NCBI GenBank assembly: GCA_025454875.1 | Contig: JALONP010000022.1 | Span: forward strand, 1 to 48,241 | Source: Bacteroidia bacterium | GTDB lineage: Bacteria > Bacteroidota > Bacteroidia > UKL13-3 | Direction: 5' to 3' | Length of the DNA: 48,241 nt | Part shown: one piece after another, positions 17,088 through 25,378 of the stretch | Numbering within the stretch: the stretch's first letter is position 1 | Layout of the letters: each line of letters begins with the position of its first letter | Made by a program: the position numbers and the translations under genes | The notes under the pieces: generated by a model | Databases searched by the model: none | The model's input: the letters and a program-made list of their open reading frames with translations, nothing else | Told to the model about the DNA's origin: nothing

Positions 17088-17413
17088 ATTGTTGAATACA
17101 CCTGCAAGTATAAACATATTGCATGGTTTCCTTTTGTACTCGTTTAAGATGGTTATATTTGAGTAGATACGCGCTATCAGAGAGCAAGCAAAGATGATTA
17201 ATGAATTATTATGTGTAAAAATCAAACTTCTTAAAAGACAGCTTAATGTATTACTTATTAGAAATCAGCAGGTCTAATTCTGTTTATATATTTGATATAA
17301 GAAGCTGATTTGGTGAAGAGATTCAACTAATAGCAGAAATTCAAGTATTTTATATCTTGAAAAATAATATATTTTTAGAGTTAGATATATATTAGCAGAC
17401 ATTTCAAAATGAC
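17088..17413. other. AT-rich divergent region between menI and the hsd island
   Basis: A visibly AT-rich 326-bp gap. It contains a TATATTTG box (17287-17294, plus strand), an inverted repeat (17340-17361) and a direct repeat pair (17328-17344 and 17390-17407) before the regulator gene. No clear integration site or flanking duplication of the island was found. The first 138 bp are open in the menI frame but do not look coding. Confidence 0.6.
17328..17407 (+). promoter_or_regulatory. Candidate operators of the hsd-linked regulator
   Basis: Two near-identical direct repeats, TAATAGCAGAAATTCAA (17328-17344) and TATTAGCAGACATTTCAA (17390-17407), bracket a perfect inverted repeat TTCAAG-N10-CTTGAA (17340-17361). 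All lie within 90 bp of the regulator start. Controller proteins of restriction-modification systems bind repeated boxes in this position; binding here is inferred. Confidence 0.4.
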
Positions 17414-17605
17414 ATGAACAGAATAAAAGAAGTGTTGGAAGAAAAAGGAGTAAAACAGACTTGGTTGGCTGAACAACTGGGGAAAAGTTACAACATGGTG
17501 AATGGCTATGTGCAAAACCGACAACAGCCAAGACTTGAAGTGCTTTTTGAAATTGCCAAAATACTAGGTGTTAAACCACAAGACTTAATAAAAGAGAAAA
17601 AATGA
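17414..17605 (+). CDS. XRE-family helix-turn-helix regulator of the hsd operon
   Basis: A 63-residue single-domain DNA-binding protein. The helix-turn-helix is [20 protein letters not shown], and the rest ([21 protein letters not shown]) is typical of the HTH_3/XRE fold. It overlaps hsdM by ATGA (17602-17605) and begins the operon, so it is likely a controller-type regulator that times methylation and restriction after entry into a new host. It is smaller than most C proteins (about 75-100 residues). Confidence 0.8.
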
Positions 17606-19149
17606 CAAGCATAGCACAACGACAAGAATTGCAAGCCAAAATATGGAAAATAGCCAACGATGTTCGTGGCTCAGTGGATGGATGGGACTTTAAACAGTTT
17701 GTCTTAGGTACGCTGTTCTATCGCTTTATTAGTGAAAACTTTACCAACTATATTGAAGGTGGTGACGATAGCGTTAACTATGCAAACTATCCTGACAAAG
17801 ACATTACACCCGAAATAAAAGACGATGCGATAAAAACAAAAGGTTACTTCATTTATCCTAGTCAACTTTTTGTGAATGTTGCCAAAACAGCAAACACAAA
17901 CCCCAATCTGAACACAGACTTAAAAGCGATTTTTGACGCTATTGAAAGTTCTGCAAATGGTTATCCGTCAGAGCCAGACATTAAAGGTTTGTTTGCCGAC
18001 TTTGACACCACAAGCACACGATTGGGCAATACCGTTGAAAGCAAAAACTTACGTTTGGCTGCCGTTTTGAAAGGTGTTGAAGAACTAAATTTTGGAAATT
18101 TTGAAGACAACCAAATTGACCTTTTTGGTGATGCTTATGAGTTTTTGATTTCTAACTATGCAGCCAATGCAGGAAAATCAGGAGGTGAATTTTTTACTCC
18201 GCAGCACGTTTCAAAACTCATTGCACAGTTGGCAATGCACAAGCAAGAAAAGGTAAATAAAATTTACGACCCTGCGGCTGGTTCAGGCTCTTTGTTGTTG
18301 CAAGCCAAAAAGCATTTCGACAATCATATTATTGAAGAAGGTTTTTATGGGCAGGAAGTAAACCACACTACATACAACCTTGCCCGTATGAACATGTTTT
18401 TACACAACATCAATTACGACAAGTTTAATATTGCCCTTGGCAATACACTGATTGACCCACATTATGGCGATGAAAAACCTTTTGATGCCATTGTTTCTAA
18501 TCCTCCTTACTCAATAAAATGGATTGGTGACGATGACCCAACGTTGATTAATGACGACCGCTTTGCTCCTGCTGGTGTTTTGGCTCCTAAATCAAAAGCT
18601 GATTTTGCCTTTGTACTTCATGCCCTTAGTTATCTATCCAGTAAAGGAAGGGCAGCAATTGTTTGTTTCCCTGGTATCTTTTACCGTGGCGGTGCAGAGC
18701 AGAAAATCAGAAAATATTTAGTGGATAATAATTTCGTTGAAACTATTATCTCTCTTGCTCCAAACTTATTCTATGGAACTCCAATAGCAGTTACAATTCT
18801 TGTCCTCTCAAAACACAAAACCGAAAACAAAACTCAGTTTATTGATGCCAGTGGTGAAGACTTCTTTAAGAAAGTCACCAACAACAATGTGCTTACTGAT
18901 AAACACATTGAAAGGATTATGGAAATTTTTGATAGCAAAGAGGATATTGAATATGTAGCTAAGACTATAGATAATTCGAAAATTGCAGTAAATGATTATA
19001 ACCTCTCGGTAAGCTCTTATGTTGAAACAAAAGACTACAGAGAAAAATTTGATATAGTTGAATTGAACAGTGAGGTTTCAAAAACTGTGGCGAGGATAAA
19101 TATACTTCGTGCTGACATTGATAAAATAATAAAAGAAATTGAGGCATGA
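17602..19149 (+). CDS. hsdM: Type I restriction-modification DNA methyltransferase subunit
   Basis: The adenine-N6 methyltransferase subunit of a type I system; with HsdS it methylates, and with HsdR added it restricts. The 515-residue protein has the HsdM_N helical domain (1-150), GGEFFTP at 194-200, SAM motif I DPAAGSGS (223-230) and catalytic motif IV NPPY (300-303), confirming an m6A enzyme. It overlaps the regulator by 4 bp and hsdS by 4 bp, so the subunits are translated together. All key motifs are intact. Confidence 0.96.
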
Positions 19150-20411
19150 GTTACTTTGATAAGTTAATAGAAGGAATCGAAGTTGAATGGAAAGCCTTGG
19201 GTGAAGTATGCGATTTTCAAAACGGCTTTGCATTTAAGAGTAGTTTGTTTAAAGAAACAGGTTTGCCAATTATTAGAATTACAAATATTAATGGTACTAA
19301 TGTTGACTTGTCGAATGTAAAGTACTTTGACCCCGTTGACTATAGTTCAGGTAACCCACTTAATTACGAAGTTGAAAAAGGAGATATACTTATAGCCATG
19401 TCAGGTGCTACCACTGGTAAAATTGGGTATTACAACTTTAACGAAAAAGCCTACTTAAATCAACGTGTAGGCAAATTTATACCTAACAAAGAAATACTTA
19501 ATAATCGCTTTTTATATCATTATCTTCTAACTAAATCTGATTTTTTATATGTTCTTGCTGGAGGCGGAGCACAGCCTAATTTAAGTTCAAATAATTTAAA
19601 GGAAAAATTAGAAATACCTATTCCGTGTCCAGATAATCCAAAGAAATCACTGGATATCCAAAATAAAATTGTTCATATACTTGACAGATTTGCGGAGCTT
19701 ACAGCGGAGCTTACAGCGGAGCTTACAGCGGAGCTTACAGCTCGTAAAAAGCAGTATACCTTCTACCGGGAGCAGTTGTATAGTTTTAATGAAGTGGGTA
19801 CTAACAGAGAACCACTTGGCGTAATTGGTGGGTTTCAAAGAGGAAAAAGGTTTGTAAGAGAAGATATGCTTGCAGATGGTGTACCCTGCATTCATTATGG
19901 TGAGATGTACACTTATTATGGTACTTGGGCAAACAAAAGCAAGTCATTTCTAAGTGAGGAATTGGTAGAAAGAAAAAATCTACGAGTTGCGGAATATGGA
20001 GATGTTGTGATTGTGGCTGCCGGTGAAACCATTGAGGATATAGGATTGGGTACAGCTTGGTTAGGCGATGAAGGCGTTGTAATTCACGATGCTTGCTTTT
20101 CTTTCAGAAGTCCATTAAACCCAAAATATGTAGCCTACTTTACACGTACTAAACAATTCCACGACCAAATAAAAAAACATATTTCATCGGGAAAAATATC
20201 CGCCATCAATGCCAAAGGTTTAGAAAAGGTTTTAATCCCAGTTCCTTCACCAGAGGAACAGGAACGTATTGTTACCATCCTTGATAAATTCGACATACTC
20301 ACTGCTTCAATTAGCGAAGGTTTGCCGAAAGAAATTGAGTTAAGGAAAAAGCAATACGAGTATTATCGTGATTTATTACTAACCTTTCCTAAGAATAATA
20401 TAGAATCATAA
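19146..20411 (+). CDS. hsdS: Type I restriction-modification specificity subunit
   Basis: The 421-residue DNA-recognition subunit with two target-recognition domains. TRD1 is about 10-180 and TRD2 about 215-385, each followed by a conserved helix: ILDRFAEL... (from ~176) and [20 protein letters not shown] (C-terminal). The central spacer carries four exact 12-bp repeats (19692-19739) coding AELT each, then [20 protein letters not shown]-type repeats at this site in the EcoR124 family set the spacing between the two half-sites. The two halves are unrelated, so the target should be bipartite and asymmetric. Confidence 0.95.
19692..19739 (+). repeat. Four 12-bp tandem repeats inside hsdS
   Basis: GCGGAGCTTACA is repeated four times without mismatch and in frame (residues 183-198, AELT x4). 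Perfect short repeats can change number by slippage or recombination; because each unit is 12 bp the frame is kept. Confidence 0.95.
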
Positions 20412-20412
20412 A

Positions 20413-21558
20413 ATGGGACAGTCGTTAATCCAAATAGCAGAAACACTTAGAGATGCTGATAAAAAGTTGCAGCTAATCTATGCTTTTAATGGATCTGGTA
20501 AAACTCGTTTATCTCGTGAATTCAAGCAGTTGATAGCCCCAAAAGAACTCGAAGCAGAACAGGAAGAAGATTCAGGGATTAAAATACTTTACTATAATGC
20601 TTTTACCGAAGACTTATTCTTTTGGGATAATGATTTAGAGGCAGACTCAGACAGAAAGCTAAAAATACAACCCAACAATTTTACAAATTGGGTACTTCGT
20701 GAACAAGGTCAAGACCGCAATATTGTTGAGAATTTTCAACTTTTAACTAATGAAAAATTAACTCCGCAATTCAATGAAGAGTTTACAGAGGTTCGATTTT
20801 CATTTGAACGAGGTAATGAAGGTGACACTGAACTTGTGAAAATTTCTAAAGGTGAGGAAAGCTGTTTTATTTGGAGTGTGTTTTTCAGTTTAATGGAACA
20901 AGTTGTAAGCGTTTTAAACATTTCGGAAAAAGAAAATCGTGAAACTGATCAATACGATAAGCTAGAATATATTTTTATTGATGACCCAGTTAGCTCCTTA
21001 GATGATTCACATCTAATTGAATTGGCTGTGAATATTTCAGAATTAATAAAGTCAAGTACTTCAGATTTGAAATTCATTATCACAACCCACAATCCTTTAT
21101 TCTACAATGTGCTTTTCAATGAGTTTAATAGAGTTAAAAAGACCAAAAAATGGCTTTTGGAAAAGTTGAATGATGGTACTTTTTCAGTTAATGAATTAGA
21201 AAACGATTCACCTTTTTCGTATCACTTGTTTCTATTAGCAGAATTAGAGAAAGCAATACAGCCAGCAGGTGAGATAAAAAAGTTTCATTTCAACTTTCTA
21301 CGCAACATACTAGAAAAGACCTCAACATTTCTTGGATACAATAAGTGGGAAGAACTTTTGCCGCAAGAGTCAAGAGAAGCATATTACAGAAGAATAATAA
21401 ACCTATCAAGTCATTCAAAACATAATGGCGAAGAAATTGCAATTGTTGAAGAAAATGATAAGAGAGTATTGGGCTTCCTCGTTAATGAAATAAAAAGAAT
21501 GTACGGCTTCAAGCCAACAATTAACACAAGCACAACGGAACAAAATGTCGCAGTATAA
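20413..21558 (+). CDS. prrC: PrrC-type anticodon nuclease (AAA_13 ATPase) linked to hsd
   Basis: A 381-residue ABC/AAA-like ATPase with a C-terminal nuclease part. The Walker A motif is AFNGSGKT (24-31), a signature-like ISKGEES is at 144-150, Walker B is [12 protein letters not shown] (187-198) and the switch His226 is in TTHN. The C-terminal third has DSPFSYHL (265-272), resembling the tRNA-recognition region of E. coli PrrC, and Arg297-x3-Glu301 with His334 33 residues on, close to the PrrC triad Arg320/Glu324/His356. Length (PrrC is 396) and position between hsdS and hsdR, as in the prr locus, both agree. It should be held inactive by HsdMSR and cut host tRNA, classically tRNA-Lys, when restriction is blocked by a phage. 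The match rests on recalled family features, not on an alignment. Confidence 0.83.
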
Positions 21559-24500
21559 AACCATAGCAGAATCCAACAACTTCATCGTGTTGGATAAATT
21601 CACCAAACATTTTGAGGTGAATGAAGCACTTGCTGTTTATCAAACAGAGGCAGCACTGGAAAAGGAATTTATTCAAGACCTGATTAATCAAGGTTACGAA
21701 AATCCGAAAAACTTAAATACGCTTGAAGAGATGTTGGCAAATGTAAGAGTGCAATTGCAATCGCTTAACAATGTAGAGTTTTCAGATAGTGAATGGACAC
21801 GTTTTGTTGAAGAATATTTAGATAAGCCAAGCGATAACCTTGTTGAGAAAACAAGAAAAATCCACGACAACTATATCTATGATTTCGTTTTTGATGATGG
21901 TCATATTCAAAACATCTACTTGTTAGACAAAAAGAATATCACACGAAACAAATTACAGGTAATTTCTCAATTTGAACAGAAAGGAACTCAAGCCAATCGC
22001 TATGATGTTACCATTTTAGTAAATGGTTTGCCTTTAGTTCAAGTTGAATTAAAGAAACGTGGTGTTGCCATTCGTGAAGCATTCAATCAAGTTCACAGAT
22101 ACTCAAAAGAAAGTTTTAACAGTCAAAATTCCCTCTTTAAATACATTCAGATTTTCGTCATCTCAAACGGTACCGACAGCCGATATTTTGCAAACACGGT
22201 TGAACGAAGCAAAAACAGTTTCGACTTTACCATGAATTGGGCAAAGGCTGACAATACCCTGATTAAAGACCTCAAGGATTTTACTGCTACATTCTTTCAA
22301 AAACATACGCTTTTAAATATTCTGCTTACCTATTCTGTTTTTGATACGAGTGATACACTGCTTATAATGCGACCTTATCAGATTGCTGCCACAGAACGTA
22401 TGTTGTGGAAAATAAAAAGTTCCTATGAGGCAAAGAAATGGTCTACAACAGATGGTGGTGGTTATGTTTGGCACACTACAGGCTCAGGCAAAACGCTTAC
22501 CAGTTTCAAAGCAGCACGATTAGCAACACAATTGGAATTTATTGAAAAGGTATTTTTTGTAGTTGACCGTAAAGATTTGGACTATCAAACTATGAAGGAA
22601 TATCAGCGATTTTCTCCCGATAGTGTGAACGGTTCAGAAAGTACAGCGGGTTTGAAAAGAAATATAGAAAAAGACGATAATAAGATAATTGTAACCACCA
22701 TTCAAAAACTAAACAACCTCATGAAAACAGAGGGTGACTTGCCGATTTACCAAAAGCAAGTCGTTTTCATTTTTGATGAATGTCATCGTTCTCAGTTTAG
22801 CAGTAAGAAAGATGGTAAAACAATTGGAACACAGTATAATCTACAAAAGAAGTTCAAGAAATATTACCAATTTGGATTTACAGGAACACCTATTTTCCCT
22901 GAAAATGCTATAGGTGCTGAAACTACGGCAAGTGTTTTCGGTCGTGAACTACATTCATATGTCATTACAGATGCTATTCGGGATGAAAAGGTGTTGAAAT
23001 TCAAAGTTGATTACAATGATGTTCGTCCTCGGTTTAAGAGCATAGAAACTGAAATGGATGAGAAAAAATTAAGTGCAGCCGAAAACAAAACTGCTTTGCT
23101 TCACCCTGCTCGAATCAAAGAAATATCTCAATACGTTTTACAGAATTTTAAGATAAAAACCCATAGAAATCAGGGAAGTAATAAAGGCTTTAACGCCATG
23201 TTTGCTGTAAGCAGTGTGGATGCTGCCAAATGTTATTATGAGGAACTAAACAGCCTGCAAAAAGAGAGCGACAAACCTTTAAGGATTGCAACAATCTTCT
23301 CCTTTGCTGCCAATGAAGAACAAAGTGCAATTGGTGAAATTGTTGACGAGACTTTTGAGCCTTCAGCAATGGATGTTACAGCCAAAGAGTTTTTAACCAA
23401 AGCTATCAATGACTATAACGCCATGTTCAGAACCAGTTATGGCGTTGACAGCAATGAGTTTCAGAATTATTACCGTGACCTTGCCAAACGTGTTAAGAAC
23501 AAAGAGGTTGACTTAATTATTGTAGTCGGAATGTTTTTAACTGGCTTTGATGCTCCAACACTTAATACATTATTTGTTGACAAGAATTTGCGTTATCACG
23601 GCTTAATTCAAGCCTTTTCACGAACAAACCGAATTTATGATGCAACAAAGACTTTTGGCAATATTGTTACATTCAGAGATTTAGAAAAAGCAACGATTGA
23701 CGCAATTACCCTTTTCGGAGATAGCAACACTAAAAATGTAGTTCTTGAAAAGAGTTACAAAGAATATTTGGAAGGCTTTACGGACATTGTTACAGGTGAA
23801 GCACGGAGAGGTTATGTTGAAGTAGTAAAAGAGTTAAATGAGAAATTTCCTAATCCAGACGAAATCGCAAAAGAAAAAGACAAAAAGGAATTTGCGAAAC
23901 TATTCGGAGAGTATTTGAGAGTAGAAAACATACTCCAGAACTACGATGAATTTAACCACCTTAAAGCACTTCAAGGACTTGACTTAAATAATCCAGAAGC
24001 AGTTGAAGAATTTAAAAAAGCTCATTTTGTAACAGAAGAGGACATTGCAGCAATGCAAAAGATTGAATTGCTTAAAGAAAGGACAGTTCAGGATTACCGT
24101 TCAACTTACAATGATATACGTGATTGGTTAAGACGGGAGAAAAGCGGTAAAGAAGCAGAAGAATCTAAAATCGACTGGGACGATGTTGTGTTTGAAGTTG
24201 ACTTGTTAAAATCGCAAGAGATAAACCTTGACTACATTCTTGAATTGATTTTTGAGCACAACAAGAAAACCAAAGACAAAGACAGTTTAATTACTGAAAT
24301 ACGCAGAGTAATCCGTGCAAGTGTTGGAAATAGAGCAAAAGAAAGTTTGGTTGTTGACTTCATAAATGAGACAGACCTTGACACCTTGCAAGACAAAGCA
24401 AATGTTATAGATTCATTTTTTGTATTTGCCCAAAACAAACAGAAAGCAGAGGCATTGGAATTAATCACAGAAGAAAATCTAAATGAGGAAGCAGCTAAGC

Positions 24501-24676
24501 GTTACATAACAAATTCCTTGAAGCGAGAATATGCAAGCGAAAACGGAACAGAACTGAATGCACTTTTACCAAAAATGAGTCCATTAAATCCTCAATATTT
24601 GACTAAGAAGCAAAGTGTATTTCAAAAATTAGTTTCGTTTGTAGAGAAGTTTAAAGGAGTTGGAGGGCAACTTTAA
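21545..24676 (+). CDS. hsdR: Type I restriction endonuclease subunit
   Basis: The 1043-residue motor-nuclease subunit, which translocates DNA and cuts far from the recognition site. The nuclease centre is seen as Asp154...Glu168-Leu-Lys170 (PD-(D/E)xK). The helicase part has Walker A TTGSGKT (311-317), DECH (411-414), FTGTP and the later [20 protein letters not shown] and QAFSRTNRI motifs. The C-terminal ~200 residues should bind HsdM/S. It overlaps prrC by 14 bp. No frameshift is seen, so the system looks functional. Confidence 0.96.
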
Positions 24677-24757
24677 TCGAGTAAATGAGAAGATATTGAT
24701 AAAGCGGAGTTTTATGAAGGCGTCTTCAAAAATGGGAAGCTTCAATTCAAACTAATA

Positions 24758-25378
24758 ATGACAAAAACAATTTATATCATCCGACACGGAGAAACAGATT
24801 TTAACAAACAAAATATTGTACAAGGCAGCGGGGTGGATATGCCGCTAAATGAAAAGGGCAGGTGGCAAGCCGAACAGTTTTACAACGCATACAAAAACCA
24901 TCCCTTTCAGGTTGTTTACACCTCAGCATTGGTGCGCTCTCAACAAAGCGTGGCAAAATTTATTGAGCAAGGTATTAAACATATTGCCCTACCCGAACTT
25001 AATGAAATTAGTTGGGGCGATTTTGAGGGGAAACAGCAAACACCTGTCCAACGTGAAACATACTGGCGCCTTATTGAGCAGTGGAATAAGGGCGAGTTAA
25101 ACGCAAAAATTCCAAATGGCGAGAGCCCAATTGAAATGCAAGCGCGCCAACAAGGTGCACTGAACAGAATACAAGCAAGTACCGAAGAAGAAATATTGAT
25201 TTGCATGCATGGCCGTGCAATGAAGAGTTTTTTGTGCTTGTTACTAAATGAACCCCTTACACAAATGGAAAAATTTCAGCACACTAATTTGTGTTTGTAC
25301 CAACTGCAAATAGAGGACAATACAACCCAATTGCTTAAAACAAACGACACAAGCCACCTGCATACCATGTCCCAATAA
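24758..25378 (+). CDS. Histidine phosphatase family protein (phosphoglycerate mutase-like)
   Basis: A 206-residue cytosolic phosphatase. The phospho-acceptor motif is IRHGET (His10), followed by a second Arg in ALVRSQQS, the acid-containing ELNEISWGDFEGK and the second catalytic His in ICMHGRAMKS. These are the hallmarks of the dPGM/GpmB branch. Substrates in this branch range from phosphoglycolate-like metabolites to cobalamin intermediates; none can be assigned here. It starts 81 bp after hsdR and marks the return to core genes. Confidence 0.85.
   Translation: MTKTIYIIRHGETDFNKQNIVQGSGVDMPLNEKGRWQAEQFYNAYKNHPFQVVYTSALVRSQQSVAKFIEQGIKHIALPELNEISWGDFEGKQQTPVQRETYWRLIEQWNKGELNAKIPNGESPIEMQARQQGALNRIQASTEEEILICMHGRAMKSFLCLLLNEPLTQMEKFQHTNLCLYQLQIEDNTTQLLKTNDTSHLHTMSQ

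What the first reader, a model, noticed from the sequence alone, without database searches (positions are those of the whole stretch)
20413..21558. PrrC-like anticodon nuclease embedded in a Bacteroidota hsd operon
Seen: gene order hsdM-hsdS-X-hsdR with X a 381-residue ATPase (Walker A AFNGSGKT, Walker [11 protein letters not shown]) whose C-terminal third has DSPFSYHL, Arg297-x3-Glu301 and His334. Known: E. coli prrC sits at the same place, is 396 residues and uses Arg320/Glu324/His356 to cut tRNA-Lys when phage T4 Stp blocks EcoprrI. Inference: a second-layer suicide defence guarding this type I system. The tRNA target could differ because the recognition peptide (265-272) is not identical to what I recall of E. 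coli.
Basis: partly seen in the sequence, partly recalled or inferred. Interest (0 to 1): 0.8.

Follow-up and report, generated by a model that had tools for sequence, protein, structure and literature searches.

The report
PrrC tRNA-cutting guard of restriction operon
A bacterial gene cluster that cuts foreign DNA carries a built-in back-up toxin, PrrC, predicted to cut the cell's own lysine tRNA when a phage disables the cluster; it is a new member of a known family, and comparison with its relatives suggests that the toxin half has been swapped between bacteria several times.

Summary
Window 20413-21558 encodes a 381-residue PrrC ortholog (PADLOC PrrC model, E=3.2e-140; 53% identical to a 396-residue E. 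coli PrrC). It lies in an intact, tightly coupled type IC operon, hsdM-hsdS-prrC-hsdR. The ATPase motifs are present, and R297/E301/H334 align with the catalytic R320/E324/H356. Most likely it is a latent tRNA-Lys anticodon nuclease released when a phage neutralises the R-M enzyme (inferred from family biology; no assay). The doubt about the target is only weakly supported: the wobble-contact residue D287 is kept (D265), and the one tRNA-Lys gene found in the host has E. coli's anticodon loop.

Going further, PrrC nuclease domains come in two discrete types: E. coli-like 'DSNKSFSYH' and 'DSPFSYH' as here. The split needs one change on the nuclease-domain tree but ten on the ATPase-domain tree (three forced by well-supported branches). 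AU tests reject congruence both ways (p=0.0007; p=3e-5). In the chimeric cases examined the flanking hsd genes look native. So the nuclease domain appears to be an exchangeable cassette on an R-M-linked chassis. I found no report of this in print, but two key PrrC papers are not held.

The parts
17602..19149 (+). hsdM, type I modification subunit (515 aa)
   Evidence: TIGR00497 5.3e-194
19146..20411 (+). hsdS, type I specificity subunit (421 aa)
   Evidence: PDLC03077 4.5e-126
19692..19741 (+). 12-bp tandem repeat, 4.2 identical copies, in hsdS; encodes the TAEL spacer repeat described for type IC enzymes
   Evidence: meaning of TAEL repeats from PMC3874165 passages
20413..21558 (+). prrC, predicted latent anticodon nuclease (381 aa): ABC-ATPase residues about 1-245, HEPN-type nuclease about 262-381
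20482..20505 (+). Walker A AFNGSGKT (residues 24-31)
   Evidence: G29, K30, T31 invariant in 83 of 83
20845..20859 (+). ABC signature SKGEE (residues 145-149)
20977..21006 (+). Walker B / D-loop [10 protein letters not shown] (residues 189-198); D197 aligns with E. coli D222
21088..21090 (+). linchpin His226
   Evidence: invariant in 83 of 83
21205..21228 (+). tRNA-recognition peptide DSPFSYHL (residues 265-272), P type; D265 aligns with the wobble-contacting D287 of E. coli PrrC
21301..21303 (+). catalytic Arg297 (E. coli R320)
   Evidence: invariant in 83 of 83
21313..21315 (+). catalytic Glu301 (E. coli E324)
   Evidence: invariant in 83 of 83
21412..21414 (+). catalytic His334 (E. coli H356); with R327 also gives the HEPN R-x6-H motif
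   Evidence: invariant in 83 of 83; R327 in 82 of 83
21545..24676 (+). hsdR, type I restriction subunit (1043 aa), overlapping the end of prrC by 14 bp
   Evidence: TIGR00348 5.4e-201

Best explanation
A true PrrC: a latent tRNA-Lys(UUU) anticodon nuclease encoded in one operon with, and presumably kept silent by, the type IC enzyme HsdMSR. Its N-terminal Rad50/SMC-like ABC-ATPase (about 1-245) is the regulatory and R-M-binding chassis. Its C-terminal helical HEPN-type domain (about 262-381) uses R297/E301/H334 to cut the anticodon loop. When a phage anti-restriction factor disables the R-M enzyme, the nuclease is released, the host tRNA-Lys is cut, translation stops and the phage is contained. 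Shown here: homology, motifs, intact operon, conserved linkage, presence of a matching tRNA-Lys. Inferred from characterised relatives: silencing, trigger, cleavage site and tRNA target. In addition the nuclease domain is one of two discrete types, which appear to have been exchanged on a common ATPase chassis.
For: PADLOC PrrC 3.2e-140 over residues 3-377. 53% identity to E. coli PrrC with five published residues aligned. Triad, wobble-contact Asp, Walker A Lys and linchpin His invariant in 83 of 83 sequences. Of 82 homologous loci, HsdR follows prrC in 82 (within 50 bp in 71), HsdS precedes it in 81 (the 82nd, L082, is cut by the contig end) and HsdM is found upstream in 75. Own genome: one tRNA-Lys found, anticodon UUU, loop CTTTTAA and discriminator A the same as in E. 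coli lysT. ATPase part of the model aligns to Rad50 and SMC heads (Z up to 13.2). Nuclease model is helical with HEPN toxins at ranks 2 and 3 (Z 6.1 and 5.7, weak). Literature: E. coli PrrC biology (PMC3014915 section 33 and passages; PMC2610378 sections 3 and 5), and a divergent PrrC, PrrC170, which with its R-M genes protects against T1 and T7 and targets tRNA-Lys (PMC11555353 passages).
Against: No biochemical or in vivo evidence for this protein. The recognition peptide lacks the N-K of the E. coli peptide and has P for S, and the C-domain is only about 40% identical to K-type (E. coli-like) ones (34-45%), so target or cleavage site could differ. The silencing and trigger mechanism as read here is that of E. 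coli EcoprrI/Stp. The HEPN fold match is weak (no Foldseek match at E<=0.001 for the nuclease domain). Distances between the triad residues in the model were not measured, because coordinates are not delivered, and H334 borders a low-confidence loop (pLDDT under 50 at 335-341). The PrrC box could not be checked by name.
Confidence: 0.85

Rival explanations
1. A PrrC-fold nuclease with a different RNA target (another tRNA, or another site in tRNA-Lys), because its recognition peptide and nuclease domain are of the second (P) type.
For: Peptide DSPFSYH versus DSNKSFSYH; two sharply separated types; K-P C-domain identity 31.5-50% (mean 39.5) against a mean of 66% for the ATPase part; 20 of 21 class-separating columns lie at residue 246 or later. 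The review PMC3014915 (section 33) states that the recognition sequence varies among PrrCs and substrates may vary.
Against: D287-equivalent kept in 83 of 83 and in 13 of 15 further rows. Host tRNA-Lys loop identical to E. coli's. The type does not follow host MnmC/MnmD wobble-modification genes. The more distant PrrC-like group also lacks the N-K insertion (24 of 24), and PrrC170, which fits that group by gene order and identity (its sequence not seen), targets tRNA-Lys (PMC11555353 passages).
Confidence: 0.2
2. A degenerate or non-nuclease PrrC homolog kept only as a structural part of the R-M enzyme.
For: No activity data; the peptide differs from the E. coli prototype.
Against: Catalytic and ATPase residues intact, open frame undisturbed, the five closest relatives 86-91% identical with the same residues.
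Confidence: 0.04
3. An RloC-type DNA-damage-responsive nuclease rather than PrrC.
For: Shared ATPase and triad; RloC-like genes occur in other genomes of the same family.
Against: 381 aa against 754-811 aa frames, no CxxC zinc hook, embedded in hsd; full-length match is to the PrrC model.
Confidence: 0.01
4. The apparent nuclease-domain exchange is an artefact of slow ATPase-domain evolution, long branches or chimeric assemblies.
For: Many N-tree branches are weakly supported (41 of 95 open), and starred branches alone force only 3 class changes, not 10. All trees used quick methods.
Against: AU tests reject one clade per type on the N part (p 0.015 with 83 rows; p 0.00066 with 98 rows) and reject the N-part Bacteroidota clade on the C part (p 2.9e-5). 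Chimeric patterns occur in records not titled as MAGs (L049, L086, L053). HsdM and HsdR of the chimeric loci examined look native.
Confidence: 0.12

Closest known systems
E. coli PrrC / EcoprrI (hsdM-hsdS-prrC-hsdR, type IC)
   Same: Gene order, size class, ABC-ATPase motifs, catalytic triad, wobble-contact Asp; TAEL repeats in HsdS (for EcoprrI from PMC3874165 passages)
   Different: 53% identity overall; nuclease domain about 40% identical and of the other type; lacks the 16-residue insert after residue 17 and the N-K of the recognition peptide
P-type PrrCs of Bacteroidota (e.g. L010, L012 Aquiflexum, L014 Chitinophaga), Enterococcus casseliflavus plasmid L091, Klebsiella plasmid L122
   Same: Recognition peptide D-x-PFSYHL, operon order
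   Different: 51-91% identity; hosts
PrrC170 of Klebsiella quasipneumoniae (PMC11555353, passages)
   Same: ABC-ATPase nuclease with type I R-M genes; targets tRNA-Lys
   Different: 35% identical to E. coli PrrC; its gene list HsdR, HsdS, PrrC, HsdM resembles the distant group found here (24 of 24 with an HsdM-like match downstream); sequence not seen here
RloC
   Same: ABC-ATPase plus R-x3-E...H nuclease
   Different: Twice the size, zinc hook, seldom linked to R-M (PMC2610378 sections 3 and 5)

Membership tests
PrrC | Sequence homology over the whole protein, both domains | tested here: met
   PDLC02360 3.2e-140, residues 3-377; 53% identity to E. coli PrrC
PrrC | 341-416 aa without zinc-hook insert (PMC2610378 section 5) | tested here: met
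   381 aa, no CxxC
[quoted passage not shown]
PrrC | Catalytic triad Arg-x3-Glu...His (E. coli 320/324/356) | tested here: met
   R297, E301, H334 aligned, invariant 83 of 83
PrrC | Embedded between hsdS and hsdR of a type IC R-M operon | tested here: met
   type IC read from EcoR124_C domain, TIGR00497 and TAEL repeat
PrrC | 15-residue PrrC box | not tested
   Its sequence is not in the texts read; the papers that should give it are not held
PrrC | Recognition peptide 284-294 of the E. coli protein (conserved in a subset only) | tested here: inconclusive
   D and FSYH kept; N-K absent and P for S
PrrC | Cuts tRNA-Lys 5' of the wobble base | not testable with these tools
   needs an assay
PrrC | Silenced by its HsdMSR and activated by an anti-restriction factor | not testable with these tools
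   needs an assay
HEPN nuclease superfamily | R-x4-6-H motif (PMC3710099 passages) | tested here: met
   R327-x6-H334; R in 82 of 83, H in 83 of 83
HEPN nuclease superfamily | HEPN helical fold | tested here: inconclusive
   Helical model, pLDDT 82; HEPN toxins Z 6.1 and 5.7; no Foldseek match at E<=0.001
RloC | Coiled-coil zinc-hook (CxxC) insert, 658-897 aa (PMC2610378) | tested here: not met
   381 aa, no CxxC

The most novel reading that the evidence does not exclude
PrrC is a two-module weapon. The ABC-ATPase chassis stays with its HsdMSR enzyme, while the anticodon-nuclease domain is an exchangeable cassette existing in two interchangeable types (E. coli-like K and the P type seen here). 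The types differ in how they grip or cut the tRNA, and phage counter-measures (tRNA repair, decoy tRNAs, inhibitors) select for swapping.
Probability: 0.35. Interest if true: 0.7.

Novelty: new member of a known kind. Interest (0 to 1): 0.45.

Why it matters
It adds a clean Bacteroidota PrrC in an intact operon. The wider pattern makes an old question testable: whether PrrC substrate specificity varies. Two natural nuclease types on similar chassis (for example L047 and L016, with 83% identical ATPase parts and different nuclease types) are ready-made swap partners for asking which tRNA, which bond, and which phage counter-defence each type meets. The published prototype (E. coli) carries what looks like the derived type.

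Tried and rejected
Wobble-modification hypothesis. I asked whether the P/K type follows host MnmC/MnmD. PF05430 and TIGR03197 were searched in 48 genomes (49 handles given, chosen by me from the 80 loci plus the own genome; L033 is not held). Bacteroidota: 16 of 19 P-type and 4 of 4 K-type hosts have a PF05430 match; none of these 23 has a TIGR03197 match over cut-off. The P-type gammaproteobacterium (G087) has both in one frame; the five other P hosts outside Bacteroidota (one of them, L048, unassigned) have no PF05430 match. K-type Proteobacteria are mixed (14 of 19 with PF05430). The type does not follow these genes: rejected.

Empty site without prrC: the closest HsdR in the family sample (G045, 87% identical) lies near a contig end, and no match to HsdM, HsdS or PrrC was found in the 6 kb fetched; the 0.7 kb upstream is repeat-rich and full of stops. 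It is no clean empty operon; nothing concluded.

Solved PrrC structure: none by sequence (best E 0.11; profile best E 0.14). Promoter and terminator scans were at shuffle level; no Rfam match at gathering score in 17200-24900; no tRNA gene in the window. The own tRNA-Lys found no E. coli tRNA-Lys by blastn, so K-12 lysT was fetched directly.

RloC comparison: a first script gave no usable frame for five of seven loci (L003, L004, L006, L007, L008), and for the other two (L005, L009) a profile made from A1 reported no match. One search read six of the seven (not L009) as stop-to-stop frames of 754-811 aa: CxxC and a DDP Walker B in 6 of 6, the R-x3-E...SH pattern in the C-terminal part in 3 of 6 (L003, L004, L005). 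'RloC-like' rests on that.

S. mutans PrrC, reported as active in unpublished results (PMC2610378 section 3), could not be typed; the relevant papers are not held.

Sampling bias: the 80 genome-contig loci (best 80 of 120) were seeded with the window protein, including peptides of the C-domain, which favours P. Of the Bacteroidota found by the N-domain query, the eight with 63% or more N-part identity are 7 K and 1 P, the P being the window itself.

Rows dropped before the 98-row trees: L134 (the window), L156 (same genome as L078), L172 (second piece of L163), L174 and L177 (same genome as L044), and the 24 distant rows. Klebsiella L122 was compared but not put in the trees. HsdR and HsdM trees used 78 and 73 rows; 5 and 10 loci lacked a long enough frame, so L046 has no HsdM value.

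Full report
1. Observation. One search finds four collinear genes: 17602-19149, 19146-20411, 20413-21558 and 21545-24676. Profiles identify HsdM, HsdS, the unknown X, and HsdR with an EcoR124-type C-terminus. X is 381 aa and carries Walker A AFNGSGKT (24-31), signature SKGEE (145-149), [10 protein letters not shown] (189-198), linchpin H226, DSPFSYHL (265-272), R297, E301 and H334. Neighbouring genes touch or overlap, so the operon looks translationally coupled (inference). No other copy of X is in the genome at E<=0.001. Among 64 genomes of the same family only the window's own holds a full-length PrrC. Seven others match the model in part; six of these seven were read: frames of 754-811 aa, all with a CxxC and a DDP Walker B, three with the R-E-H pattern near the C-terminus, i.e. 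RloC-like. The one same-genus genome (G063) has neither PrrC nor an HsdR match at E<=1e-50. The gene is thus accessory in this family.

2. Identity. The PADLOC PrrC model matches residues 3-377 at 3.2e-140. A tblastn of plasmids finds 113 records, 105 with at least 80% of the query covered. One, L090 (E. coli), is a 396-aa protein annotated 'anticodon nuclease' between hsdS and hsdR. It has D222, D287, R320, E324, H356 and the peptide KYGDSNKSFSY at 284-294, the positions given for E. coli PrrC in the review PMC3014915 (passages and section 33). Window residues D197, D265, R297, E301 and H334 align with them. Of 82 homologous loci (80 of genome contigs, the best of 120, plus L090 and L091), HsdR follows prrC in 82 (within 50 bp in 71), HsdS precedes it in 81 (L082 begins 32 bp before prrC), and HsdM is found upstream in 75, six of the other seven being cut by contig ends. 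In 83 aligned proteins (these and the window) the triad, the D287 equivalent, Walker A G-K-T, Walker B DD and the linchpin His are invariant.

3. Structure. The full model (pLDDT 78) aligns over about residues 1-270 with Rad50 and SMC heads (best Z 13.2, rmsd 3.7, 211 residues). The nuclease part alone (pLDDT 82) is helical. R297 and E301 lie in one helix and H334 just after another, next to a low-confidence loop. Foldseek finds nothing at E<=0.001; VIA-align lists two HEPN toxins at Z 6.1 and 5.7, ranks 2 and 3 of the 35 rows shown, which is weak. The HEPN R-x4-6-H motif named in PMC3710099 (passages) is met by R327-x6-H334. The distance between triad residues could not be measured.

4. Target. 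The own genome yields 31 tRNA matches (150 of 225 candidates were scored). In the 30 that became loci there is one tRNA-Lys, anticodon UUU; a second, missed copy is not excluded. Its anticodon loop CTTTTAA and discriminator A equal those of E. coli lysT, while the stem differs. In E. coli PrrC, D287 is thought to contact the modified wobble base (PMC3014915 passages); this Asp is kept here. A more distant group was also found: 24 proteins of 336-409 aa, N-part identity to the window 35-46%, triad in 24 of 24, each with an HsdM-like match downstream (24 of 24). None of the 24 has the N-K insertion; in 14 of them the stretch reads mostly D-T-P-x-F-[HY]-H. The D287 position holds D in 11, K in 8, N in 3 and S in 2 of the 24. 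PrrC170, 35% identical to E. coli PrrC with genes listed as HsdR, HsdS, PrrC, HsdM, targets tRNA-Lys (PMC11555353 passages). It fits this group by order and identity (26-33% over the alignment, 35-41% of aligned pairs for the 24), although its sequence was not seen. If so, tRNA-Lys brackets the P type, the P state appears ancestral, and the E. coli NK-S form derived; C-domain identity to the 14 is 30.3% for P and 25.9% for K.

5. Two nuclease types. In 83 proteins the recognition region is either G-D-[SA]-N-[KQR]-[SR]-F-S-[YH]-H (42, E. coli type, 'K') or D-[SA]-P-F-[SA]-Y-H (41, window type, 'P'), with nothing between. On a whole-protein tree without those columns the label changes once (SH-aLRT 100). 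But the two halves disagree. Mean identities for residues 1-240: K-K 71, P-P 71, K-P 66%. For residues 262-381: K-K 76, P-P 65, K-P 39.5% (31.5-50). Twenty of 21 class-separating columns lie at residue 246 or later. The N-part tree groups 38 rows, Bacteroidota but for one unassigned, including four K types (97*), and needs 8 label changes (3 forced by starred branches); the C-part tree needs 1.

6. Independent sample. The N part alone was searched in 395 genomes of the window's phylum, 398 of the phylum of L078's genome and 398 of that of L044's (22, 16 and 4 genomes matched at E<=1e-20). Fifteen new close PrrCs were added. With 98 rows (55 K, 43 P) the N tree needs 10 changes (3 forced), and Bacteroidota, Pseudomonadota and Bacillota rows each include both types. 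The AU test rejects one clade per type on the N part: p 0.015 with 83 rows, p 0.00066 with 98. The reverse test, holding the 41-row N-part Bacteroidota group together on the C part, gives p 2.9e-5. The D287 equivalent is kept in 13 of the 15 new rows, S in L160 and A in L173.

7. Exchange, not whole-gene transfer. In L047 (Flavobacterium), mean identity to Bacteroidota-P versus Proteobacteria-K rows is HsdM 81/74, PrrC-N 73/66, PrrC-C 41/69, HsdR 85/77. The reverse holds in L053 (Neptuniibacter): 78/85, 62/65, 53/40, 78/84. L049 and L086 behave like L047, although the difference is small for HsdM in L049 (76/74) and for PrrC-N in L086 (66/64). HsdR leans native from its first 60 residues in L047, L049, L086 and L053, and is undecided in L046 (63/62). 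The crossover lies near window residues 200-245, close to the domain boundary. HsdR and HsdM trees each need 7 label changes (FastTree). So the segment that moves is about the last 400 bp of prrC. Against this: overall pairwise-identity correlations do not single out N over C strongly (N-HsdR 0.67, C-HsdR 0.62; N-HsdM 0.58, C-HsdM 0.58), many N-tree branches are weak, and the trees used quick methods.

8. Prior knowledge. [quoted passage not shown] I found no report of nuclease-domain exchange: one search was aimed at it and five were on PrrC in general; these are listings of a partial library, with passages of PMC12409363 and PMC12707154 looked at. The two papers most likely to discuss it (Blanga-Kanfi 2006, Klaiman 2007) are not held, so novelty of that point is unproven.

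9. Verdict. The finding is a correct and well-read PrrC; as such it is a new member of a known kind. The cassette-like behaviour of its nuclease domain is the part worth following. Whether the two types differ in function is open.

Noticed in passing
window 19692-19741: hsdS carries 4.2 identical copies of a 12-bp repeat (TAEL). Copy-number slippage would be expected to change the spacer of the recognition site, as described for EcoR124I/II in PMC3874165 (passages).
   Followed up: partly
L142-L155, L164-L171, L175, L176: A distant PrrC-like group (336-409 aa, R-E-H triad in 24 of 24) sits upstream of a divergent hsdM, i.e. in other type I families; two subtypes by C-terminus (14 and 10).
   Followed up: partly
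L090:10570-11076 (-): An E. coli plasmid with phage-like genes carrying hsd-prrC has, just after hsdR on the other strand, a stand-alone PNKP-type 3'-phosphatase (PF25109 6.7e-12), reminiscent of the T4 Pnk repair enzyme that counters PrrC.
   Followed up: no
L054:7491-8534, L056:7088-8170: In 11 of 82 loci extra sequence (0.35-2.1 kb, five times 1047 bp) separates prrC from hsdR. Two were read: a RhuM-like ORF after a short ORF (L054) and a YhcG-like ORF (L056); names recalled, not searched.
   Followed up: partly
L010:3908-4804: A 298-aa ORF (looks like DinD; name recalled) lies between hsdM and hsdS in a close relative.
   Followed up: no
G000 contig C1 32346-33483: An MnmD-type methyltransferase match (PF05430) lies next to an oxidoreductase weakly like MnmC's FAD domain (71 bits, below cut-off), possibly a split MnmC.
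   Followed up: no
L003-L008: RloC-like zinc-hook ATPases in genomes of the same family, while PrrC itself was found in the window's genome only.
   Followed up: partly
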